A DNA stretch of 64,000 nt from Xestospongia muta (Eukaryota; Porifera; Demospongiae; Haplosclerida; Petrosiidae), in the NCBI GenBank assembly GCA_963693285.1, contig OY848929.1, positions 1,490,501 to 1,554,500 on the forward strand. The letters are read 5' to 3'. The position numbers and the translations under genes are program-made. Within the stretch, counting starts at the first letter, position 1; each line of letters begins with the position of its first letter. The notes below the pieces were generated by a model. The model worked only from the letters and a program-made list of their open reading frames with translations, was not told the DNA's origin and ran no database searches. Below, one piece after another: positions 15,000 through 51,877 of the stretch.

Positions 15000-17369
15000 C
15001 TATTGTGTCTTACAGCCTGATGATGTTGTAGCTGGGGCAATACTTGAATCAGAAAACTCTCTACTATAATCACCTGTATGCATCTGTATAAGCTCAGCAC
15101 GTCTCTCTGAAAATACTTCAGCAAATTCACTAAACGTCTTCTCATCAATGATGCAAATATTTATCTCACGCAAAGTATCGTCATGGAGATAATCATAATC
15201 TAAGATAGCTGTGATAAAAGCATTGGCGGCAAGTTTCCTGTTCACATTGTAATGCCCTGTAGCAATAGGAGGTATTGCTATCGAAGCACAGCCCAGCTTG
15301 TCTGCTTTTACTAAACAATCTGTTATAAGTTTTATCATCTTCTGTTGGAGAACATTTTGTGTGTATTTGTTACCATCAGGTCCCACAGCATGTATCACCC
15401 ATCGACATTTTAAGCTGCCTCCACTGTGAGTAGACATGAGTCCACATTCATCCAAGAAGCCATGCTTTCGAACCCATTCATCACAAAATTCCTGCATTTT
15501 ATTGTTACTAGCAATATTGATTGCTTTCGACAGGCCACCATTGTGACTAAGGCGACGATTTGCAGCATTGACAATTACTACCACATTTTCTTTAGTGATA
15601 TCTGCTTTTTTTAAGCAAAGCTTTCTTCCTGACATGAAGATAGTAAGATTCATTTCTGATTCCATTTGTAGTTTGGCTTGGTTCATCATTTGACTGTTTG
15701 TGGATACTATTTGGATGACTTCTAGATCTTCTAAATAAGTAAAACTGCAAAATGGGTATGTTTGATTGTATTGTGTTAATTTGTGTTCTATTTCTTCTGG
15801 CGGGCAATTTGGTGGGATGCGTACAAATTCTAAACATGATGGCTGATTGGCTAGCTGACGATAAACACCAACCACTCTTGTTGCTCGATTTGGCAGGGAC
15901 TCCATTGGTGTTGAGATAATGGTTACACAGCCAGGTTCGGGGTCACAGTACGTGACACCAGATAGTTCACCTAACTTGCTTTTGCTTAACAAAGCCACCA
16001 AATCTGGATTAAGACCTGTTATGACTTTCTTATTGGGATCACGTGAAACTTGGTCAGTGAACCTAGTCTGCTTGGAACTAGATGTTATCGTTTCACTAGT
16101 TTCATCTTTGTCATTCAGTGTTTCTTCATTTTCAGGTGGTGGCTGTGATAGGATCTCTTTAAGCTCATCCAACTTTGTCTCTAGTTCTTTGCTTTTTTCT
16201 ATCTCTTTCTGAAGCTCTTCATCTTTCGTTTTTATCAATGCTTCGTGCTCTTTAAGCATCTCTTCAAGCTGTCCAATCATTTGTTGATTTGCTTTAGCCT
16301 CTTCTAATTCCTTTAGCTGTGTCTGCATTGTCTCCTCATTAGCACTCAACTTTTCTTTGTACGTACGTATGTCATTTTTCAACATTTCGATTTCAGTGGT
16401 TTTCTCTTTTATGATAGATGTAGACATGTTTGGAATACTAGTTGAATCATTCTCTAATTGTTGGTTTGTATCTTGTTTACTTTGAGTATATATCGGCATT
16501 AGTTTCAATTTTTCAAGATGTTGACACAAATCTGAGCTACTTGGTCTCTTTGTAGGCATGTCCTCGATACAACGAATAGCTAACGGACGTAGGAAATGAT
16601 TTGGTGGAATGATACCTAATTGTTTAGCTCGTCGATCGACCTCCTTAACAGGCATTCGTACAAATCCTGTCGGTGAGGCAGCATCAGCAACTAAGACTTC
16701 GTGTGTATCAGGCTCAGGGAAACGACAGGTGAGAATTTGAATGATCAGAACACCAAATGAGAAACAATCAAGTTTCTCAGAGTAGGCTGGTAGTTGATTC
16801 AAAGCTTCAGGTGGCATGTATATCGGACTTCCCGGACACTGTGTCATACGCTGTTGTGCATCTCTCAATTTTGAGACACCGAGATCAGTGATTTTAGCCC
16901 GACAATCTCCTTTTAAAAGAATGTTATTACTGGAGAGATCACGATGAATGATGCCATTATTGTGAAGAAAATGCAGAGCTAGAGCCACATCATGACAAAT
17001 GTCTATTTGGCAATGTGCAGGGACAGGATGACTATCTGGATCATGTCGATCCAAGAAACAGGTAAGGCTCTCGTCCATTAGTTCCATGAGTAGTGCAGTG
17101 CATCCTCTAACAGGATCGTGGTATTCTCCAAGGAACTGAACAAGACAAGGATGTTGTAATGACGAGAGAAGAACACATTCTTGATGGAATCTGTCAATGG
17201 TGTCTTTTACGGCTGGATCTGTTGAATTAAGGAACATAGGATGAAGAATCTTAGCTGCACAGGGTAAGTGATCACATTTAGCTTTATATACTGAACCATA
17301 TGCTCCACTGCCAAGAGGTTCGTTAAAAGCTATGTACACATTTTTAAATCTTAGCAAGGATTGCGTCAT
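15000..17369 (-). CDS. Protein kinase - coiled coil - KH-like - macrodomain protein 1
   Basis: 789 residues, single exon, ATG at 17369. Residues about 8-290 are a protein kinase domain: glycine loop GSGAYGSVYKAK, lysine in CAAKIL, catalytic HRDLSSNNILL, metal site DLG in place of DFG, and MPPEAL. The HRDLSS loop fits neither the usual Ser/Thr (HRDLKxxN) nor Tyr (HRDLAARN) pattern, so specificity is open. Residues about 315-415 are a Glu/Lys coiled coil. Residues about 445-575 resemble the KH-like module that precedes macrodomains in PARP14-type proteins. Residues about 580-755 are a macrodomain with the ADP-ribose loop intact (VNAAN, HNGGLSKAI, WVIHAVGPDG, ATGHYN). The protein ends CKTQ. It is divergent from its neighbour at 17544, with 174 bp between the start codons. 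A cytosolic or membrane-tethered role in ADP-ribose-linked signalling is inferred. Confidence 0.9.
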   Translation of the reverse strand: MTQSLLRFKNVYIAFNEPLGSGAYGSVYKAKCDHLPCAAKILHPMFLNSTDPAVKDTIDRFHQECVLLSSLQHPCLVQFLGEYHDPVRGCTALLMELMDESLTCFLDRHDPDSHPVPAHCQIDICHDVALALHFLHNNGIIHRDLSSNNILLKGDCRAKITDLGVSKLRDAQQRMTQCPGSPIYMPPEALNQLPAYSEKLDCFSFGVLIIQILTCRFPEPDTHEVLVADAASPTGFVRMPVKEVDRRAKQLGIIPPNHFLRPLAIRCIEDMPTKRPSSSDLCQHLEKLKLMPIYTQSKQDTNQQLENDSTSIPNMSTSIIKEKTTEIEMLKNDIRTYKEKLSANEETMQTQLKELEEAKANQQMIGQLEEMLKEHEALIKTKDEELQKEIEKSKELETKLDELKEILSQPPPENEETLNDKDETSETITSSSKQTRFTDQVSRDPNKKVITGLNPDLVALLSKSKLGELSGVTYCDPEPGCVTIISTPMESLPNRATRVVGVYRQLANQPSCLEFVRIPPNCPPEEIEHKLTQYNQTYPFCSFTYLEDLEVIQIVSTNSQMMNQAKLQMESEMNLTIFMSGRKLCLKKADITKENVVVIVNAANRRLSHNGGLSKAINIASNNKMQEFCDEWVRKHGFLDECGLMSTHSGGSLKCRWVIHAVGPDGNKYTQNVLQQKMIKLITDCLVKADKLGCASIAIPPIATGHYNVNRKLAANAFITAILDYDYLHDDTLREINICIIDEKTFSEFAEVFSERRAELIQMHTGDYSREFSDSSIAPATTSSGCKTQ

Positions 17370-17543
17370 ATCGTATTAATAGAGACTCCTGTGTATCTGC
17401 GCTGCTAATTTTGAATCATATAGTACTACAGAAAATTGGAGACAATGAGAAAGCAGGAAGAAAGACGATCACTCACTTAAAAGGGAAAATTCAGAACTAA
17501 AATAGGCGTGGTGTAAGTGAAACGACCCACCCAATTCTTAAAC
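17370..17543. promoter_or_regulatory. Shared intergenic promoter region of two divergent kinase-macro genes
   Basis: 174 bp separate the start codons of the genes at 15000-17369 (minus) and 17544-19757 (plus). Both transcription starts must lie here or overlap the neighbouring 5' UTR, so co-regulation is likely. No TATA box or known factor site stands out. Confidence 0.6.
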
Positions 17544-19757
17544 ATGGCTACTACTTTTTCATCCGACTATGGATTCAATGAGATCAAGATTTACAGAGAT
17601 CAATACTTGGGTAGTGGTGCTTATGGTATAGTATGTAAAGCCAAATGTGACCAATTACCCTGTGCTGCCAAACTCCTTCATCCAACGTTCTTAGTCCCTG
17701 GTAACTGGGCAGCTGATAAGTTCATGCAAGAGTGTTCTTTTCTGGCCTCTCTCAAACACCCTCACATTGTACAGTTCTTAGGACTACATACAGAGCCTTC
17801 CTCAGGACAAGCAGCACTTCTCATGGAACTAATGGATGAGAGTCTGACCAATTTCTTGGAGAGACACTGTTCCACTGATCGAACAGTACCTCTGCATATT
17901 CAAGTCAACATGTCTCATGATGTAATCTTAGCACTACAATATCTTCATAGCAATGGTATCATTCATCGTGACCTCTCCAGTAACAATGTTCTCTTGTTAG
18001 GAGAATGTCGAGCCAAAGTGACTGACTTTGGCATGTCTAAACTAACTTGTAACTCATCCCCTCTTTCATCTTTGACTCAAGTACCAGGTTGTCCAGTCTA
18101 TATGCCACCAGAGGCATGGATAAGTCCCCCTATATACACAGAGAAGCTGGATATCTTCTCTCTAGGTGTACTCATTGTACAAATGATAACATGCTGTCTA
18201 CCAAACCCAGGACCATTAGAAGTATTAATAGCTGATGAGCGATCTCCGACTGGTTTCATGAAACTTCCTGTATCTGAAGTAGATAGGAGAAGTGAAGACA
18301 TTGCTCAGATCTCTCCTGATCATCCTCTGAAAGACATTGCACTGGAATGTTTGACGGACAGAGCAGAACAGCGACCAACGTCAAAAGACTTGTGTCAAAA
18401 ACTGGAGACACTCAAGATGTCACAGTATTACCAGGACAGTAAAGGTAACACAGGACAGCTAGTAAATGAGGTACCTACTGACAGTTCTGACTCTAGTCAT
18501 AAAAAGGACTCCTTAGAAAAGACAATAAAGGAAAATGAGACGGAACTACAAAAAAAGAAAGAGAGAATTGCCAGTCTTGAAGTAGAGGTCAAATCATTGA
18601 AAGAAATTGTTTCCGAGAAAGATTCCGTTATTGAAAAGCTAAAAGCTGAACTAAAAGAGAGTAAGGCTGCTTCTGTTCCAGCTCCAATTCCTGCCAAAAA
18701 ATTATTGCAAAATGAAGTGGAGAGGATAGTTATAACTGGCCTATGTCCCGAGATTCTCTCCATTTTATCACGGGACTCTAATACCATTCTCTTCAATATT
18801 GACTACAACATCAACGAAGGAAAAGTTACATTTTTCCATCATCCTCACATAGCAGATAAAGACAGACACGTCAAATTATTTCTACATGTCTATCAACATC
18901 ATTTCAATTCAGGCAGACTTCGGGTTGGCTTTCATCAGATTCCTGAATCTTATCCAAGTTCTGTTTTGAAGAAATATCTTGCTGCATGTAGCAAGAAACA
19001 CAATGAATGCTTTTTTCAGCATGTAGAAGCTGCTGGTGTGGTAAAAGTGTTATCTAAGTCATCAGATCTTTTCAAGTTGAGCACACAAGTAATTCAAGAT
19101 GCACTCTGCTTTGCTATCACGATTCCTGGAGGTCGAAAACTATCGATTAAACATGGAAACATCTTGGATGAAGAAGCAAATATTTATGTCACTGAAGCTC
19201 AGCCAAATTTAAGTAACTCAAAGGGTTTTTCATCAGTTATGAATATCGCCAGTAATTTTGAGCTTCAGAAGCATTGTGAGGAGTATATAAAGAAAAATGG
19301 CCCACTTAAACCTGGTCAAGTAGCTGCCACACTCAGTGGAGGATTAAAAAGTAACTGGGTCATACACTCACTGGGTCCTACTTCAGCGTATGCTCGAGAG
19401 AAAAAGTCTGACCAAATGGAATTTGAAGTGAAATCAATAATGAGAGAGTTATATACAAATATTCTTCTAAAAGCAGAAAAGCTCAAAGCTACATCCATTG
19501 TTTTACCTGGACTTGGATCTGGTCTTCTCAGCTTTGATGATGATGATGTGTCAGCTGAGCTAATGATTGAGATATTGTTAACTTATCGTTATGTATCTTT
19601 GAAAGATATCAGATTAGTTATATTAAATGAGACAGTTTATAACGTATTTCTCAATGTGTTCATTAACCAGAGCACTTATTGGACGACCCAATCGTACCAG
19701 CCACTTATAATTAGTACTGATGATGACACTACTGGTAAATCTTGTAAACATCAATGA
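17544..19757 (+). CDS. Protein kinase - coiled coil - KH-like - degenerate macrodomain protein 2
   Basis: 737 residues, intronless. The ATG at 17544 (AACATGG context) is chosen because the frame upstream has only a GTG and paralogue 3 begins similarly. The kinase (about residues 10-290) has GSGAYGIVCKAK, CAAKLL, HRDLSSNNVLL, DFGMSKL and MPPEAW, all key residues present. A coiled coil follows at about 315-385, then a KH-like region. The C-terminal macrodomain fold is recognisable (WVIHSLGP, LPGLGSGLL) but its ADP-ribose loop is altered: the NAAN position reads TEAQ and the GGL position reads SKGF. It probably does not bind ADP-ribose normally. It ends CKHQ. The first 370 or so residues are nearly identical to paralogue 3 (19926-22181), with which it is convergent. 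Confidence 0.88.
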   Translation: MATTFSSDYGFNEIKIYRDQYLGSGAYGIVCKAKCDQLPCAAKLLHPTFLVPGNWAADKFMQECSFLASLKHPHIVQFLGLHTEPSSGQAALLMELMDESLTNFLERHCSTDRTVPLHIQVNMSHDVILALQYLHSNGIIHRDLSSNNVLLLGECRAKVTDFGMSKLTCNSSPLSSLTQVPGCPVYMPPEAWISPPIYTEKLDIFSLGVLIVQMITCCLPNPGPLEVLIADERSPTGFMKLPVSEVDRRSEDIAQISPDHPLKDIALECLTDRAEQRPTSKDLCQKLETLKMSQYYQDSKGNTGQLVNEVPTDSSDSSHKKDSLEKTIKENETELQKKKERIASLEVEVKSLKEIVSEKDSVIEKLKAELKESKAASVPAPIPAKKLLQNEVERIVITGLCPEILSILSRDSNTILFNIDYNINEGKVTFFHHPHIADKDRHVKLFLHVYQHHFNSGRLRVGFHQIPESYPSSVLKKYLAACSKKHNECFFQHVEAAGVVKVLSKSSDLFKLSTQVIQDALCFAITIPGGRKLSIKHGNILDEEANIYVTEAQPNLSNSKGFSSVMNIASNFELQKHCEEYIKKNGPLKPGQVAATLSGGLKSNWVIHSLGPTSAYAREKKSDQMEFEVKSIMRELYTNILLKAEKLKATSIVLPGLGSGLLSFDDDDVSAELMIEILLTYRYVSLKDIRLVILNETVYNVFLNVFINQSTYWTTQSYQPLIISTDDDTTGKSCKHQ

Positions 19758-19925
19758 CATTTAATTTTATTTTACAATCCCTTCTTAGCCCACTTTTCAA
19801 AAAATTGTTTTTTAATATTAGATATTTATTGATGACAAATACATGATGTTATTAGTAAAAAAATATTTTTTGAATATTTTTTTGAAAAATTTATTTGAAA
19901 AAAATATACATATGATCTGACATTA
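19758..19925. other. AT-rich spacer between two convergent genes
   Basis: 168 bp between the stop codons of two inverted paralogues, with several A and T runs that could form short hairpins. It presumably holds both poly(A) sites. Confidence 0.5.
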
Positions 19926-22181
19926 TTATTGATGTCTACATGAGCTAGGTAGAGAAGAGGAAGAAATGGATGATGAAGAGACAACCAAATCATTAGGACT
20001 AGAACTTGCAGGTGTTTTTTTAGGTCCTTTTAATTGAAGCTCAATAAATTCATCAACAAACTGTTTGAATATATTATCCCTTAATATAACCACACAAATA
20101 TCAACAAGAGAAGACGAAGGAGAAAATTCATAACTTGAAAGACCCTCCAAGATACCCTTAGCAGCTACGCTAGCTACCAGCATAAGACTGCCTGTACTGA
20201 TGGCTGGAATGGCTATGGAGGTTGCTTCGAGTTTTTCTGCTCTTTGAAGAATCCTATGCATCATTGCTTTCATTTCTTTCACTATCTCTGCTTTCATAGT
20301 TGGATCAACTTTCTCATTATTGATTAAAATCCCAGCAGGTCCAACAGCATGGATAATCCATTTACATTTTAAATTGCCACCAGCCTTTGTGTGAGCTATC
20401 TGTCCAATGTCCAGACCACCATGTTTTTCAACATATTCATTGCAATGTTTTTGTACTTCAAACTGACTGGCAACATTAATGGCTGCTGAGACACCCCAAC
20501 GATGCATTAGGCCAGAATTAGCTGAGCTGACAATTATCGATACATCTTCATCAACTATGTTTGCTTTCTTCAGTGTTAGTTTTCTCTCTTCACTCAGCAT
20601 TAGTCGCAAGTTGAGAAGATTGTTTAATAATTTAGTTGTATTTCTGTGTAATTCCACTGATTTTGAAATCACTTTAATCATATTCGCTTCTTTGATGTAT
20701 TCAAGTGGACTTACATTGGACTTCAGACCACAATATGCTAATACTTTACCGACAAACTCACTTGGAAAGGTTGCTGGAATAGGAAGAAACTCTACACGAA
20801 GTTGACTGGAGTTGAAAAAATGTTGGTAGACTTGAAGAAAGACTCGCGTATTTTGTTCTATACCTTCAGCTCCTGGATGAAGATGAAAAATGACCCTACC
20901 ATTTTTAACATCATATGCAATATTGAATACTCGATATTCAGAGTCCTTTGATATGATACTTAATACTTCAGGACTGAGAGAAGATAATGTTGTTCTATCA
21001 TCTTCATGTTTGAAAGGTTGGTTGAGAGCCTCATTTCGTGTCATTGCTTCAGCTTTTAGTTTTTCAATAACAAAGTCTTTCGCGGAAACAATTTCTTTCA
21101 ACGATTTGACTTCTCTTTCAAGGGTGGAAATTTTCTCTTTCTTTTTTTGTAGTTCCATCTCATTTTCCTTTATTGTCTTTTCTAAGGAGTCCTTTTTATG
21201 ACTAGAGTCAGAACTGTCAGTAGGTACCTCATTTACTAGCTGTCCTGTGTTACCTTTACTGTCCTGGTAGTACTGTGACATCTTGAGTGTCTCCAGTTTT
21301 TGACACAAGTCCTTTGAGGTTGGTCGCTGTTCTGCTCTGTCCGTCAAACATTCCAGTGCAATGTCTTTCAGAGGATGATCAGAGATCTGAGTAATATCTT
21401 CACTTCTCCTGTCTACTTCAGATACAGGAAGTTTCATGAAACCAGTCGGAGATCGCTCATCAGCTATTAATACTTCTAGTGGTCCTGGGTTTGGTAGACA
21501 GCACGTTATCATTTGTACAATGAGTACTCCTAGAGAGAAGATATCCAGCTTCTCTGTGTATATAGGGGGACTTATCCATGCCTCTGGTGGCATATAGACT
21601 GGACAACCTGGTACTTGAGTTAGAGATGAAAGAGGGGATGAGTTACAAGTTAGTTTAGACATGCCAAAGTCAGTCACTTTGGCTCGACATTCTCCTAACA
21701 AGAGAATATTGTTACTGGAGAGGTCACGATGAATGATACCATTACTATGGAGATATTGTAGTGCTAAAATTACATCATGAGACATGTTGACTTGAATATG
21801 CAGAGGTACTGTTCGATCAGTGGAACGGTGTCTCTCCAAGAAATTGGTCAGACTCTCATCCATTAGTTCCATGAGAAGTGCTGCTTGTCCTGAGGAAGGC
21901 TCTGTATGTAGTCCTAAGAACTGTACAATGTGAGGGTGCTTGAGAGAGGCGAGAAAAGAACACTCTTGCATGAACTTATCAGCTGCCCAGTTACCAGGGA
22001 CTAAGAACGTTGGATGAAGGAGTTTGGCAGCACAAGGTAATTGGTCACATTTGGCTTTACATACTATACCATAAGCACCACTACCCAAGTATTGATCTCT
22101 GTAAATCTTGATCTCATTGAATCCATAGTCAGACATAAAGGAGCTTGTGGAGCTTAAAGATGAGGATGAAATGGATGCCAT
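19926..22181 (-). CDS. Protein kinase - coiled coil - KH-like - macrodomain protein 3
   Basis: 751 residues, intronless, ATG at 22181, followed by a Ser-rich N-terminus not shared with paralogue 2. The kinase domain has GSGAYGIVCKAK, CAAKLL, HRDLSSNNILL, DFGMSKL and MPPEAW. It differs from paralogue 2 at only about ten residues over the kinase and coiled coil, including a one-codon deletion (QISDHPL versus QISPDHPL). After VIEKLKAE the two proteins diverge abruptly. The macrodomain (about residues 530-700) has SSAN in place of NAAN and HRWGVSAAI in place of GGLxxAI, but keeps WIIHAVGPAG and IPAISTGS, so binding may be changed rather than lost. It ends CRHQ. It lies head-to-head with CRAMP1, 378 bp between start codons. 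Confidence 0.88.
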   Translation of the reverse strand: MASISSSSLSSTSSFMSDYGFNEIKIYRDQYLGSGAYGIVCKAKCDQLPCAAKLLHPTFLVPGNWAADKFMQECSFLASLKHPHIVQFLGLHTEPSSGQAALLMELMDESLTNFLERHRSTDRTVPLHIQVNMSHDVILALQYLHSNGIIHRDLSSNNILLLGECRAKVTDFGMSKLTCNSSPLSSLTQVPGCPVYMPPEAWISPPIYTEKLDIFSLGVLIVQMITCCLPNPGPLEVLIADERSPTGFMKLPVSEVDRRSEDITQISDHPLKDIALECLTDRAEQRPTSKDLCQKLETLKMSQYYQDSKGNTGQLVNEVPTDSSDSSHKKDSLEKTIKENEMELQKKKEKISTLEREVKSLKEIVSAKDFVIEKLKAEAMTRNEALNQPFKHEDDRTTLSSLSPEVLSIISKDSEYRVFNIAYDVKNGRVIFHLHPGAEGIEQNTRVFLQVYQHFFNSSQLRVEFLPIPATFPSEFVGKVLAYCGLKSNVSPLEYIKEANMIKVISKSVELHRNTTKLLNNLLNLRLMLSEERKLTLKKANIVDEDVSIIVSSANSGLMHRWGVSAAINVASQFEVQKHCNEYVEKHGGLDIGQIAHTKAGGNLKCKWIIHAVGPAGILINNEKVDPTMKAEIVKEMKAMMHRILQRAEKLEATSIAIPAISTGSLMLVASVAAKGILEGLSSYEFSPSSSLVDICVVILRDNIFKQFVDEFIELQLKGPKKTPASSSPNDLVVSSSSISSSSLPSSCRHQ

Positions 22182-22559: not shown

Positions 22560-28738
<6,179 letters not shown>

Positions 28739-29027: not shown

Positions 29028-31786
<2,759 letters not shown>

Positions 31787-42595: not shown

Positions 42596-43142
42596 GGTGA
42601 GTAATCTCTCCATCCAACATCTCTCAACCATTTTCAGTTGTTACAAATTCTCTCTCTTTCTCCCTCTATGTTCTCTACGACTCGCATCATCGTTGGATCT
42701 TCTCGTACTTCGTTGGATCAACTCGCCCATCTCCTCGCTGGATCATCTTTTTGTTTCATTTATGTCATCTTTATCTGTTCTTTTCTTTTTTATTCTACTT
42801 ATTTTGTTTATTTTTACTTTTTAATTTTTGTAATTTTTTTGATTTTTGTAATTGATTTCTTCTCACTCTTCGTTTCTACAGGGCTCGACTTGGAAGTTCT
42901 TACTGTATTCTCGACTGTTCTTCTCTGGTGTTCATGACTGTCTTCTATGATGTTCTCTGATGTTCTCTCGACTGTTCTGATGTTCTCTTGATGTAAAAGA
43001 TGAGTCGCTCTCTGTGTCATTGGACTCTTTCCTGTCTTCCTTCCAGCCTTCTTTCCTCTTCTTTTAATTTTTATTTTTATTTTTTTTTTGGGCTATCCAG
43101 CCCATACACCATACACACACTCATACAATCCCTAAAAATCAT

Positions 43143-43214
43143 CTCTCCCCTGCCGCCTGGCGGCCAAAAAAAATTTTTTTTTAATATCCAAGGCCGCCAG
43201 GTGGCGGGGGAGAG
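43143..43214 (+). repeat. GC-rich 23-bp inverted repeat, array unit 1
   Basis: Arms 43143-43165 and 43192-43214 (CTCTCCCCTGCCGCCTGGCG... and its partner) flank an A-run/T-run loop. The two non-Watson-Crick positions are G-T pairs, so an RNA copy would pair along all 23 positions. This is a marked GC island in AT-rich surroundings. Confidence 0.85.
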
Positions 43215-43363
43215 CTCTGATCTTCTAGGGTGCGTGTGTGTGTGTTGTGTGTGTGTGTGTAGGTTGGTGGTCCCTTTTCACTTCCTCTGTCTCTCTTCAC
43301 TCTCTCTATCCAGTCATTGTCACTTCCAGTTCAGTTATCACTGCTTTTTTTCTTTCCCTACAG

Positions 43364-43383
43364 GAGCAGCACTGTTGAAGAAG
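43364..43383 (+). other. 20-nt exon-like segment, array unit 1 (also 45491-45510 and 47627-47646)
   Basis: GAGCAGCACTGTTGAAGAAG is bounded by a strong acceptor (TTTCTTTCCCTACAG) and a donor (GTGAGT/GTGAGC) in all three units. The donor-side 85 bp resemble the sequence after the first donor at 42597, so the unit has an internally duplicated splice-donor block. Confidence 0.5.
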
Positions 43384-44598
43384 GTGAGTTATCTCTCCAT
43401 CCATCCATCTCTCATCCATTCTTTAGTAATCCAGTTGTTAGCTCTCTCTTTCTCCCTCTATGTTCTCTACTTGTGGCCTGACTGGACTGTTCTTCTATGA
43501 TGTTCTCTGATGTCTTTTAACTGTTCTCTGATGTTCTTGTGATTGTTCTGATGTTCTGGGAACTCTTCAACTACTGAGACTGTCTTATTTTAATTTATTG
43601 TATTTCTTTTTTTCCATGTTTTTCTTTAATTTGTCTTCAAGTTATTGTTATTTTTTGAAAATTTTTCAAAAAACGTTTTTCACTAAAATTTGTCAAAAGT
43701 CAATTATCTTAACTTAGTTTTCAAATAAATATAAGTTAATAATTAATCACCAAGTTTGAAATTCTAAAAATTCTAGATTTAATAAAAGTAGTTTTTAGAA
43801 TTTAATTTAGTGAATTCTTACAATTTTTATTGTATTACAAATCATGTCTATCTTGTTCATTTTACCTATATTGATTTACAAGAATTTTAACAATTCATTA
43901 GTTTGTATCATATTATGTCTTTTTAGAAAAAAGTTATTATCTTTTTTTAATAATTAAAAATCTATTAACGCATTCTGCTGGCGTGTGTGCTGATAATATT
44001 TTCCTGCCTAACCAATGTGTGGTCATTTGTAATGGAGAATCTGGAGACCTTCTTTGACCGGCTTTTAATTGTTAAAATTAATTTGTATTTTATCATTAAA
44101 ATTGTTTGTTGTTTGTTTAAAAAGTTTACGGTTCAGTACTCTCACAAAATATCAACAAACTGGATGAAATATTTATATTTGAAAGCTATATTTTACTGTG
44201 TTGTCAGTACATTCCTTGCTGAAACAAAATCCTCACTTCTTATCTAAATGAACAGTCTTTTAATTTAGACTTATGGGACTGTTTGCCTCATACAACTGTT
44301 ACAACAGATCACTGTGCTCTTGATATTGTATTCCTACTTTGGGCTTGTTTGAGACAATTTAATTTATATTGATACACACATATCGTAACAGAAAATTACT
44401 GAGACAGCTAAACTGACTAGTGTGGGAGTTTCTGATAGAAATATTGTACCCTATATTGTGTATAGACATTGTCTTACAACTATATTTCTTTCCAATAACA
44501 ACTTGTAAAATAGTTAAAGTGCTGTAATATTTTATGTATTTTGAAGACTTTTTTAATTAGTTGTTAATTAGATCAATTAAAAATCAATTAATGTTTGT

Positions 44599-44623
44599 CA
44601 CGTGTGTAGTGTTTCCCGCCAAA
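44599..44623 (+). promoter_or_regulatory. E-box plus E2F-type site, array unit 2
   Basis: CACGTG at 44599-44604 and TTTCCCGCCAAA at 44612-44623; same spacing as unit 1. Confidence 0.6.
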
Positions 44624-44663
44624 TTTGTCACAAGTTTCTGATGACTGGCTGTCAAATTAAAGC

Positions 44664-44720
44664 ATGACAGGATCTCTTGATGATATTAAAAGGACTCCAT
44701 TTTGCAAGCTTATAGTATAA
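44664..44720 (+). CDS. 18-codon conserved ORF, array unit 2
   Basis: Identical peptide to unit 1; donor GTGAGT at 44722. Confidence 0.4.
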   Translation: MTGSLDDIKRTPFCKLIV

Positions 44721-45269
44721 GGTGAGTAATCTCTCCATCCAACATCTCTCAACCATTTTCAGTTGTTACAAACACTTTCTCTTTCTCCCTCTATGTTCTC
44801 TACGACTCGCATCATCGTTGGATCTTCTCGTACTTCGTTGGATCAACTCGCCCATCTCCTCACTGGATCATTGTTTTGTTTCATTTACGTCATCTTTATC
44901 TGTTTCTTTTCTTTTTTATTCTCGTTATTTTATTTATTTTTACTTTTTAATTTTTGTAAATTTTTTGGATTTTTGTAATTGTTTTTTTTCTCACTCTTCG
45001 TTTCTACAGGGCTCGACTTGGAAGTTCTTACTGTGTTCTCGACTGTTCTTCTCTGGTGTTCTTGACTGTCTTCTATGATGTTCTCTGATGTTCTCTCGAC
45101 TGTTCTGATGTTCTCTTGATGTAAAAGATGAGTCGCTCTCTGTGTCATTGGACTCTTTCCTATCTTCCTTCCAGCCTTCTTTCCTCTTCTTTAAATTTTT
45201 ATTTTTATTTTTTTTTGGGCTATCCAGCCCATACACCATACACACACTCATACAATCTCTAAAAATCAT

Positions 45270-45343
45270 CTCTCCCCTGCCGCCTGGCGGCCAAAAAAAA
45301 AATTTTTTTTTAATATCCAAGGCCGCCAGGTGGCGGGGGAGAG
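45270..45343 (+). repeat. GC-rich 23-bp inverted repeat, array unit 2
   Basis: Arms 45270-45292 and 45321-45343, same sequence as unit 1 with a slightly different A/T loop length. Confidence 0.85.
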
Positions 45344-46736
45344 CTCTGATCTTCTAGGGTGCGTGTGTGTGTGCTGTGTGTGTGTGTAGGTTGGTGGTCC
45401 CTTTTCACTTCCTCTGTCTCTCTTCACTCTCTCTATCCAGTCATTGTCACTTCCAGTTCAGTTATCACTGCTTTTTTTCTTTCCCTACAGGAGCAGCACT
45501 GTTGAAGAAGGTGAGTTATCTCTCCATCCATCCATCTCTCATCCATTCTTTAGTAATCCAGTTGTTAGCTCTCTCTTTCTCCCTCTATGTTCTCTACTTG
45601 TGGCCTGACTGGACTGTTCTTCTATGATGTTCTCTGATGTCTTTTAACTGTCCTCTGATGTTCTCATGATTGTTCTGATGTTCTGGGAACTCTTCAACTA
45701 CTGAGACTGTCTTATTTTAATTTATTGTATTTCTTTTTTTCCATGTTTTTCTTTAATTTGTCTTTGAAGTTATTGTTATTTTTTGAAATTCTTCAAAAAA
45801 CGTTTTTCACTAAAATTTGTCAAAAGTCAATTATCTTAATTAGTTTTCAAATAAATATAAGTTAATAATTAATCACCAAGTTTGAAATTTCAAAAATTCA
45901 AGATTTAATAAAAGTAATTTTTAGAATTTAATTTAGTGAATTCTTACAATTTTTATTGTATTACAAATCATGTCTATCTTGTTCATTTTACCTATATTGA
46001 TTTTAGTTTTACAAGAATTTTAACAGTTAATTAGTTTGTATCATATTATCATTAATGTCTTTTTTAGAAAAAAATTATTATCTTTTTTTAATAATTAAAA
46101 ATCTATCAACGCATTCTGCTGGTGTGTGTGCTGATGATATTTTCCCACCTAACCAATGTGTGGTCATTAGTAATGGAGAATCTGGAGACCTTTGACCAGC
46201 TTTTAATTGTTAAAATTAATTTGTATTTTATCATTTAAATTGTTTGTTGTTTGTTTAAAAAGTTTAGGGTTCAGTACTCTCACAAAATATCAACAAACTG
46301 GATGAAATATTTATATTTGAAAGCTATATTTTACTGTGTTGTCAGTACATTCCTTGCTGAAACAAAATCCTCACTTCCCATCTAAATGAACAGTCTTTTA
46401 ATTTAGACTTATGGGACAGTTTGCCTCATACAACTGTTACAACAGATCACTGTGCTCTTGATATTGTATTCCTACTTTGGGCTTGTTTGAGACGATTTAA
46501 TTCATATTGATACACACATTTCGTAACAGAAAATTACTGAGACAGCTAAACTGACTAGTGTGAGAGTTTCTGATAGAAATATTGTACCCTATATTGTGTA
46601 TAGACATTGTCTTACAACTATATTTCTTTCCAATAACAACTTGTAAAATAGTTAAAGTGCTATAATATTTTATGTATTTTGAAGACTTTTTTAATTAGTT
46701 GTTAATTAGATCAATTAAAAATCAATTAATGTTTGT

Positions 46737-46761
46737 CACGTGTGTAGTATTTCCCGCCAAA
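46737..46761 (+). promoter_or_regulatory. E-box plus E2F-type site, array unit 3
   Basis: CACGTG at 46737-46742 and TTTCCCGCCAAA at 46750-46761. The spacer has a point change (GTAGTA versus GTAGTG) while both motifs are unchanged. Confidence 0.6.
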
Positions 46762-46801
46762 TTTGTCACAAGTTTCTGGTGACTGGCTGTCAAATTGAAG
46801 C

Positions 46802-46858
46802 ATGACAGGATCTCTTGATGATATTAAAAGGATTCCATTTTGCAAGCTTATAGTATAA
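46802..46858 (+). CDS. 18-codon conserved ORF, array unit 3
   Basis: Same peptide with Thr11 changed to Ile; donor GTGAGT at 46860. Confidence 0.4.
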   Translation: MTGSLDDIKRIPFCKLIV

Positions 46859-47406
46859 GGTGAGTAATCTCTCCATCCAACATCTCTCAACCATTTTCAG
46901 TTGTTACAAATACTCTCTCTTTCTCCCTCTATGTTCTCTACGACTCGCATCATCGTTGGATCATCTCGTACTTCGTTGGATCAACTCGCCCATCTCCTCG
47001 CTGGATCATCCTTTTGTTTCATTTATGTCATCTTTATCTGTTTCTTTTCTTTTTTATTCTCGTTATTTTATTTATTTTTACTTTTTAATTTTTGTAAATT
47101 TTTTGGATTTTTGTAATTGTTTTTTTCTCACTCTTCGTTCTTACAGGGCTCGACTTGGAAGTTCTTACTGTGTTCTCGACTGTTCTTCTTTGGTGTTCTT
47201 GACTGTCTTCTATGATGTTCTCTGATGTTCTCTCGACTGTTCTGATGTTCTCTTGATGTAAAAGATGAGTCGCTCTCTGTGTCATTGGACTCTTTCCTAT
47301 CTTCCTTCCAGCCTTCTTTCCTCTTCTTTAAATTTTTATTTTTATTTTTTTTTGGGCTATTCAGCCCATACACCATACACACACTCATACAATCCCTAAA
47401 AATCAT

Positions 47407-49354: not shown

Positions 49355-51877
<2,523 letters not shown>

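What the first reader, a model, noticed from the sequence alone, without database searches (positions are those of the whole stretch)
15000..22181. Three-gene cluster with a protein kinase - coiled coil - KH-like - macrodomain architecture
Each gene encodes a kinase domain with all catalytic landmarks fused to a C-terminal macrodomain preceded by a PARP14-like KH region. Kinase and macrodomain in one chain is, to my knowledge, not a standard animal architecture. It would link phosphorylation to ADP-ribose recognition, a pairing suited to stress or antiviral signalling. The three copies sit in 7.2 kb as divergent and convergent pairs.
Basis: partly seen in the sequence, partly recalled or inferred. 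Interest (0 to 1): 0.9.

Follow-up and report, generated by a model that had tools for sequence, protein, structure and literature searches.

The report
Sponge kinases with an ADP-ribose-reader tail
A genome that is most likely a sponge's carries three neighbouring genes whose proteins join an intact-looking protein kinase to a macrodomain (a module that usually binds ADP-ribose) and end in a predicted lipid-attachment signal; the same combination recurs in dozens of related sequences, which points to a family of signalling kinases that I found no description of.

Summary
Three single-ORF genes (789, 746, 751 aa) match Pkinase and Macro well above Pfam cut-offs. The architecture recurs: 43 of 120 listed kinase relatives carry both domains (one is the window's own), including an Amphimedon protein named "STE20-like". 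One pattern scan each of viral and prokaryote contigs found no such fusion.

(1) Of 44 sequences, 42 have Cys exactly at -4; other Cys occur twice in the last 20 positions. Tails read mostly C-[K/R]-x-[Q/S], nine times CKQQ, the farnesylated tail of LKB1; 42 of 42 pass a published yeast farnesyltransferase rule. (2) Convergent W2/W3 are 99% identical in kinase, 39% in the KH-like/macro half; other same-contig pairs repeat this. Kinase trees follow genomes, macro trees follow type. The signature Asn of the macrodomain is kept in 19 of 19 type C and 13 of 16 type B, and in 0 of 9 type A.

Best reading: farnesylated kinases that read ADP-ribose (function inferred). The KH part is weak by fold and unsupported by sequence.

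The parts
15000..17369 (-). W1 (type C): kinase - coiled coil - KH-like - macro - CaaX, 789 aa, single ORF
   Evidence: near-identical P0001 (99% over residues 440-770)
16518..17324 (-). W1 kinase domain (residues 16-284), DLG instead of DFG
   Evidence: Pfam E 8.8e-38; landmark residues
16152..16421 (-). W1 long helix, predicted coiled coil (residues 317-406)
   Evidence: AlphaFold2 model m1fa3137b646e; weak matches to coiled-coil-type families
15645..16031 (-). W1 KH-like region (residues 447-575), two alpha/beta units
   Evidence: model pLDDT 88.7; weak KH-type matches
15222..15572 (-). W1 macrodomain (Pfam match residues 600-716) with VNAAN signature
   Evidence: Pfam E 5e-22; PARP14 chain 3vfq E 6.2e-28
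15003..15014 (-). W1 C-terminal CKTQ, predicted farnesylation box
17517..19757 (+). W2 (type A): kinase - coiled coil - KH-like - degenerate macro - CaaX (likely start ATG 17544, giving 737 aa, the length of P0123)
17598..18401 (+). W2 kinase domain (residues 28-295)
   Evidence: Pfam E 1.2e-39
19203..19550 (+). W2 macrodomain (residues 563-678), signature lost (VTEAQ)
   Evidence: Pfam E 4.6e-14
19743..19754 (+). W2 C-terminal CKHQ
19926..22181 (-). W3 (type B): kinase - coiled coil - KH-like - macro - CaaX, 751 aa
21297..22097 (-). W3 kinase domain (residues 29-295)
   Evidence: Pfam E 9.1e-41
20184..20531 (-). W3 macrodomain (residues 551-666), VSSAN signature
   Evidence: Pfam E 2.8e-17
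19929..19940 (-). W3 C-terminal CRHQ
17562..18650 (+). homogenised tract, W2 arm: 1,089 aligned columns, 96.6% identical to W3 arm; stops inside the coiled coil
21048..22133 (-). homogenised tract, W3 arm (inverted partner)

Best explanation
A family, probably of sponges, of farnesylated macrodomain kinases. SHOWN BY SEQUENCE: one chain joins a TNNI3K/IRAK-type kinase with intact catalytic residues, a long helix, a KH-like region, a macrodomain and a tail ending in a conserved Cxx[Q/S] box. Members fall into three macro types (C, A, B) that stand together in this window. The kinase halves of A and B are nearly identical within a genome while their macro halves stay different. INFERRED: gene conversion does this; the tail is farnesylated and, being of the non-cleaved (shunted) kind, holds the protein at membranes or in complexes. 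Types C and B bind ADP-ribosylated targets through the macrodomain, as PARP14/PARP9 macrodomains do. Binding clusters the chains through the coiled coil and so activates the kinase. Type A, with the same kinase but a blind macrodomain, acts as regulatory partner or reads something else. The net effect would convert an ADP-ribosylation mark, perhaps laid by the PARP-type enzymes of the same genome, into phosphorylation.
For: Domains. Over 44 sequences the catalytic Lys is kept in 42 of 42 covered, HRD Asp and DxG Asp in 44 of 44. Family: 43 of 120 listed kinase relatives carry Macro. CaaX: Cys at -4 in 42 of 44, other Cys in the last 20 positions only twice; X is Q in 36 and S in 6; 42 of 42 avoid the residues that block yeast farnesyltransferase (rule from passages of PMC10320760); controls 1 of 77 kinase relatives without Macro and 4 of 113 macro relatives without kinase, the latter including partial records. 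CKQQ (9 of 44) is the farnesylated tail of LKB1 (passages of PMC10320760; tail letters in PMC3898322). The own genome has nine matches to the prenyltransferase family at three places and an ORF with Macro, WWE and PARP catalytic domain (L041). Discordance: on 21 of 44 sequences, grouping the kinase tree by macro type costs 684 log units, and grouping the macro tree by genome (five pairs) costs 1025. Signature Asn kept in 19 of 19 C and 13 of 16 B, 0 of 9 A.
Against: No binding, kinase, prenylation or expression data. Two of 44 members lack the Cys (P0129, P0132). A-type macrodomains lack the signature Asn in 9 of 9, three B-side ones (P0140, P0143, P0155) have Ser there, and the first Asn of VNAAN is kept only in 9 of 19 C, so reading is not common to all. 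HRD His is Tyr in 3 of 44. Related kinases of the same genome end in Kelch propellers, so the kinase may serve a broader role. The KH part is weak, and the W1 model has pTM 0.43.
Confidence: 0.52

Rival explanations
1. The macrodomain is an eraser or nucleotide pocket rather than a reader: it removes ADP-ribose or senses free ADP-ribose or a relative, and the kinase phosphorylates local targets independently.
For: PARP14 MD1 and PARP9 MD1 are hydrolytic (passage of PMC13224862). W1 keeps the VNAAN and GGL motifs.
Against: Many members drift at the signature (VSSAN, VTATN, VTEAQ), which suits binding or loss better than a conserved catalytic role. No hydrolase-diagnostic residue was tested here.
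Confidence: 0.2
2. A generic scaffold kinase: single-ORF TNNI3K-like kinases take various C-terminal interaction modules (Kelch, macro), and the macro half is mainly a protein-protein interaction surface with no ADP-ribose role.
For: Many related kinase frames in this genome; L004-L006 carry kinase and Kelch matches. A-side macrodomains have lost the signature Asn in 9 of 9 and three B-side ones too.
Against: The signature Asn is kept in 19 of 19 type C and 13 of 16 type B. The macro types are kept distinct over long divergence.
Confidence: 0.23
3. The C-terminal Cys is conserved for another reason (for example metal, disulfide or a partner-binding tail) and is not prenylated.
For: No prenylation assay exists. 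a1 is mostly basic and a2 non-aliphatic, not the classic CaaX. The rule used comes from yeast farnesyltransferase.
Against: The exact -4 position, Q/S at X and absence of charged a2 match the non-canonical farnesyltransferase targets LKB1, Pex19, Nap1, Ydj1.
Confidence: 0.1
4. The near-identity of W2 and W3 kinases is a recent tandem duplication with fast macro divergence, or an assembly artefact, not gene conversion.
For: The pair is an inverted repeat, a possible source of assembly error. The W2+W3 node has only 66% support.
Against: The macro halves of W2 and W3 are 90% and 93% identical to P0123 and P0122, but 39% to each other, so the macro types are older than that split. The pattern recurs in other pairs. 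Synonymous change is also low in the tract: 19 synonymous codon differences in 354 codons.
Confidence: 0.05

Closest known systems
PARP14 / PARP9 / DTX3L (macrodomain PARP and Deltex network)
   Same: W1's macrodomain matches a PARP14 macrodomain chain best among solved structures. Clustered, duplicating genes are reported for PARP14-like proteins, sponges included (passages of PMC4245714). PARP9 and DTX3L share a bidirectional promoter (passage of PMC13224862), as W1/W2 might.
   Different: No PARP catalytic, WWE or RING/DTC match shown; a kinase instead. The KH link is not shown by sequence.
LKB1/STK11
   Same: Kinase with a C-terminal CKQQ farnesylation box; DLG also in W1 (LKB1's DLG is recalled).
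   Different: Another kinase group (recalled); no macrodomain (recalled).
ZAP-L (PARP13)
   Same: PARP-family protein whose C-terminal CaaX box mediates farnesylation, membrane localisation and antiviral activity (abstract of PMC8568172).
   Different: RNA-binding domain and inactive PARP domain (same abstract); no kinase, no macrodomain (recalled).
TNNI3K / IRAK4 (TKL kinases)
   Same: Best kinase matches among solved structures after one EGFR-named entry; one source names P0002 TNNI3K.
   Different: Those carry ankyrin repeats or a death domain (recalled), no macrodomain.
Kinase - coil - Kelch proteins of the same genome (L004-L006)
   Same: Related N-terminal kinase in a single ORF; the coil is my reading of the translations.
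   Different: Kelch matches instead of Macro. Among listed kinase relatives without Macro, 76 of 77 lack the Cys at -4.

Membership tests
Eukaryotic protein kinase (TKL-like) | Catalytic Lys, helix-C Glu, HRD, Asn, DxG, APE Glu (roles recalled) | tested here: met
   Of 44: Lys 42 of 42 covered, Glu 43, His of HRD 41 (Tyr in 3), HRD Arg and Asp, Asn, DxG Asp and Gly, APE Glu 44 each
Eukaryotic protein kinase (TKL-like) | Phosphotransfer activity | not testable with these tools
   needs an assay
Macrodomain family | Match to Macro profile above cut-off | tested here: met
   W1, W2, W3 at 78.5, 52.8, 63.2 bits against cut-off 22
Macrodomain family | ADP-ribose signature residues (roles recalled) | tested here: inconclusive
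   Last Asn of VNAAN: C 19 of 19, B 13 of 16, A 0 of 9; W1 intact, W3 partly, W2 lost
PARP14-like proteins | PARP catalytic domain | tested here: not met
   No PARP match at E up to 10 among 11 of 11 (W1), 25 of 30 (W2) and 22 of 22 (W3) matched families shown; the method finds it in L041
PARP14-type KH | Profile similarity to PARP14 KH domains | tested here: not met
   No Pfam KH match among the families shown; hhalign probability 1.2% against 16 PARP14-like proteins
KH fold | KH-type alpha/beta fold | tested here: inconclusive
CaaX farnesylated proteins | C-terminal Cxxx acceptable to farnesyltransferase | tested here: met
   42 of 44 have Cys at -4, W1-W3 among them; 42 of 42 pass the yeast a2/X rule
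CaaX farnesylated proteins | Lipid actually attached | not testable with these tools
   needs labelling or mass spectrometry

The most novel reading that the evidence does not exclude
A two-specificity sensor system: within each genome gene conversion keeps one shared signalling half (kinase, often with coil) identical between two neighbouring genes while two reader halves stay distinct, one ADP-ribose-competent and one pseudo-macrodomain. The two products would form mixed, farnesyl-anchored oligomers in which ADP-ribosylation controls a kinase, a direct ADP-ribose-to-phosphorylation relay of early animals.
Probability: 0.3. Interest if true: 0.88.

Novelty: new variant of a known kind. Interest (0 to 1): 0.74.

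Why it matters
Each module is known, but I found no description of the chain kinase - macrodomain - farnesyl box (searches, listings only). It offers a testable physical link between ADP-ribosylation and phosphorylation, probably in an early animal lineage, next to a gene family (PARP14-like) tied to host-virus conflict. The recurrent homogenising of the kinase half with preserved reader types is a natural experiment on modular sensor evolution.

Tried and rejected
PARP14-type KH by sequence: not supported. Viral or bacterial origin: one scan of viral contigs gave 269 pattern matches and no relative; one of prokaryote genome contigs gave 29 loci at 25-34% identity in the best segment, all matched within query residues 3-400 (kinase, one reaching the coil), none reported over the macro half; both scans start from short peptide patterns, so they are not exhaustive. 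Reverse-order fusion in the same genome (Macro then Pkinase, L039 4555-7479): real as one ORF, but 0 of the 120 listed relatives (of 163) carry both Pfam domains, so treated as separate and probably local. A fourth kinase-first fusion in the genome: a search with W1's kinase over the 33 own-genome loci L009-L041 gave kinase only in the window's three genes and in L014/L039; loci reach only about 1.5 kb each side and genome counts are lower bounds. Literature for the architecture: none seen in the listings; passages of PMC4245714 describe sponge PARP14-like duplications and show no kinase fusion.

Many sequences are probably mechanical ORF predictions, so multi-exon members may be missed. 'Same contig' rests on equal longest-contig lengths. 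The A/B pairs P0126/P0129 and P0127/P0128 are assigned to one genome by kinase identity, which is circular; the others (W2/W3, P0122/P0123, P0124/P0125, P0131/P0133, P0135/P0139) are not. The tree test used 21 of 44 sequences chosen after seeing the trees, so its p-values are descriptive; the W2+W3 node has 66% support. P0001 and P0121 (copies of W1 and W3) were dropped before the 44-sequence counts. My type lists (8 A, 11 B) left out P0132 (A side of the macro tree) and P0140, P0143, P0145, P0155, P0161 (B side); one search counts all of them. On this recount I lowered the main confidence slightly and raised the scaffold rival.

Full report
Observation. Three ORFs of 789, 746 and 751 aa lie at 15000-17369 (-), 17517-19757 (+) and 19926-22181 (-). 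All three match Pkinase (E 9.1e-41 to 8.8e-38) and Macro (E 5e-22 to 4.6e-14) in Pfam. By sequence, W1's macro region matches a PARP14 chain (3vfq, E 6.2e-28) and its kinase matches, after one EGFR-named entry, TNNI3K and IRAK4. The AlphaFold2 model of W1 (mean pLDDT 77.8, pTM 0.43) shows kinase, one helix from 317 to 406, a KH-like block 447-575, a macrodomain to 764 and a tail (766-789) of pLDDT under 50. W1 and W2 are head to head, 147 bases between W1's start and W2's listed GTG, 174 to its first ATG. W2 and W3 are tail to tail with 168 bases between stops (coordinates).

The genome. The window is contig C13:1490501-1554500 of an unnamed 158.0 Mb assembly of 28 contigs. That it is a sponge is inferred from named relatives. 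A Macro search there gave 50 places; over the 33 own-genome loci L009-L041, W1's kinase finds a kinase only in the window's three genes and in L014/L039, the reverse-order fusion. Nearest kinase paralogues L004-L006 carry kinase and Kelch matches in a single ORF, and clusters of related kinases lie on C2 and C7. Other macro ORFs carry RING and Deltex C-terminal domains (L017, L019) or WWE and PARP catalytic domains (L041).

The family. A search with W1's KH-macro part gave 215 proteins (120 listed), of which seven, the best seven, carry both Pkinase and Macro. A search with W3's kinase gave 4254 (120 listed), of which 43 carry both; one of these (P0121) is the window's own W3, and P0001 is 99% identical to W1 over the region searched. 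One is Amphimedon queenslandica P0204, 776 aa, named 'STE20-like serine/threonine-protein kinase'; it resembles P0005 (775 aa) from end to end, so a named gene model also joins the parts. Viral contigs gave no relative, and prokaryote contigs only kinase-level matches. By the longest-contig lengths, members of different types seem to share contigs: P0131, P0133 and P0151 (364,387 bases), P0132, P0150 and P0161 (19,405), P0137 and P0006 (645,662), P0143 and P0156 (7,076). So a multi-type cluster recurs outside this genome.

The CaaX box. Among 44 sequences (W1-W3 plus 41; the copies P0001 and P0121 dropped) Cys stands at -4 in 42. Elsewhere in the last 20 positions Cys occurs twice in all. Exceptions are P0129 and P0132, both on the A side of the macro tree. 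X is Gln in 36 and Ser in 6; a1 is Lys or Arg in 40 of 42; a2 is never charged. Controls: 1 of 77 kinase relatives without Macro and 4 of 113 macro relatives without kinase. PMC10320760 (passages) reports that yeast farnesyltransferase tolerates most CXXX except D, E, K, R at a2 and K, P, R at X, with Gln at X as a positive pattern, and lists LKB1 CKQQ, Pex19 CKQQ and Nap1 CKQS as non-canonical; its Figure 1 legend calls Ydj1 and LKB1 shunted. 42 of 42 tails pass; nine are CKQQ and three CKQS. Farnesylation itself is inferred. The genome has nine matches to the prenyltransferase family at three places.

Concerted evolution. W2 and W3 match at 96.6% over 1,089 aligned columns (17562-18650 against 21048-22133), starting 45 bases inside W2's listed frame (18 after its first ATG) and 48 inside W3; the 300 bases upstream show no match. 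Over residues 16-370 there are 10 amino-acid and 19 synonymous codon differences in 354 codons; beyond, 222 amino-acid differences in 367. Kinase against KH-macro identity (%): W2/W3 99 and 39; P0122/P0123 97 and 40; P0124/P0125 99 and 33; P0126/P0129 97 and 33; P0127/P0128 96 and 41; P0131/P0133 83 and 35; P0135/P0139 75 and 31. C-type members against A or B members on one contig are ordinary paralogues (54-68% in kinase); P0132/P0161 are 82 and 29. The macro of W2 is 90% identical to P0123 and that of W3 93% to P0122. The high-identity tract runs into the coil in four pairs (W2/W3, P0122/P0123, P0124/P0125, P0126/P0129), ends between residues 280 and 320 in P0127/P0128, and is shorter in the two others. 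On 21 of the 44 sequences, forcing the kinase tree by macro type costs 684 log units (AU p 0.0004) and forcing the macro tree by genome, five pairs, costs 1025 (AU p 1.4e-33); the unforced trees agree with kinase by genome for those five pairs and macro by type. Support for the kinase pairs is 66, 93, 100, 100 and 99. Hence the kinase half was probably transferred between the two loci more than once.

Macro types. W1 keeps D-I-T, VNAAN and a TGHYN loop; W3 has N-I-V, VSSAN and STGS; W2 has N-I-L, VTEAQ and GSGLLSF, yet still matches Macro. By side of the macro tree, the last Asn of VNAAN is kept in 19 of 19 C, 13 of 16 B (Ser in P0140, P0143, P0155) and 0 of 9 A; the first Asn in 9 of 19 C, 0 of 16 B and 0 of 9 A. 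What these positions do is recalled knowledge of macrodomains.

Mechanism. See best explanation. ZAP-L is a precedent for a CaaX box serving an antiviral PARP-family protein (abstract of PMC8568172), LKB1 for a farnesylated kinase (passages of PMC3898322), and PARP14/PARP9/DTX3L for macro and KH modules in interferon signalling (passages of PMC13224862).

Verdict. A real, recurrent family that I found no description of, probably of sponges; the function is inferred.

Noticed in passing
L039 4555-7479 (+), G000:C13 about 734555-737479: A 974-aa ORF with Macro (173-288) then Pkinase (727-962): a macro-kinase fusion in the opposite order; in the neighbouring copy the kinase is split over two ORFs.
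   Followed up: partly
L017 391-2700 (-), L019 508-3204 (-): Macro plus RING-type plus Deltex C-terminal domain matches, L019 also with B-boxes: DTX3L-like genes on the same contig as the window.
   Followed up: partly
G000:C7 1.13-1.50 Mb and C2 14.0-14.2 Mb: Large clusters of related kinase frames, some with one in-frame stop; looks like a big lineage expansion.
   Followed up: no
17370-17543: Short (174-base) head-to-head gap between W1 and W2's first ATG, a candidate bidirectional promoter like that reported for PARP9/DTX3L.
   Followed up: no
24683-24845, 29510-29577, 30937-31058, 50671-50894: Long perfect TC/GA dinucleotide tracts (34 to 112 copies).
   Followed up: no
25360-28378: Two long ORFs (479 and 430 aa) without a Pfam match at cut-off; GC skew -0.34 at 26001-28000.
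   Followed up: no
42913-47259: Recurring short repeats (TTCTCTGATG, GTGTTCTCGACTGTTCTTCTATG) spread over about 4 kb.
   Followed up: no
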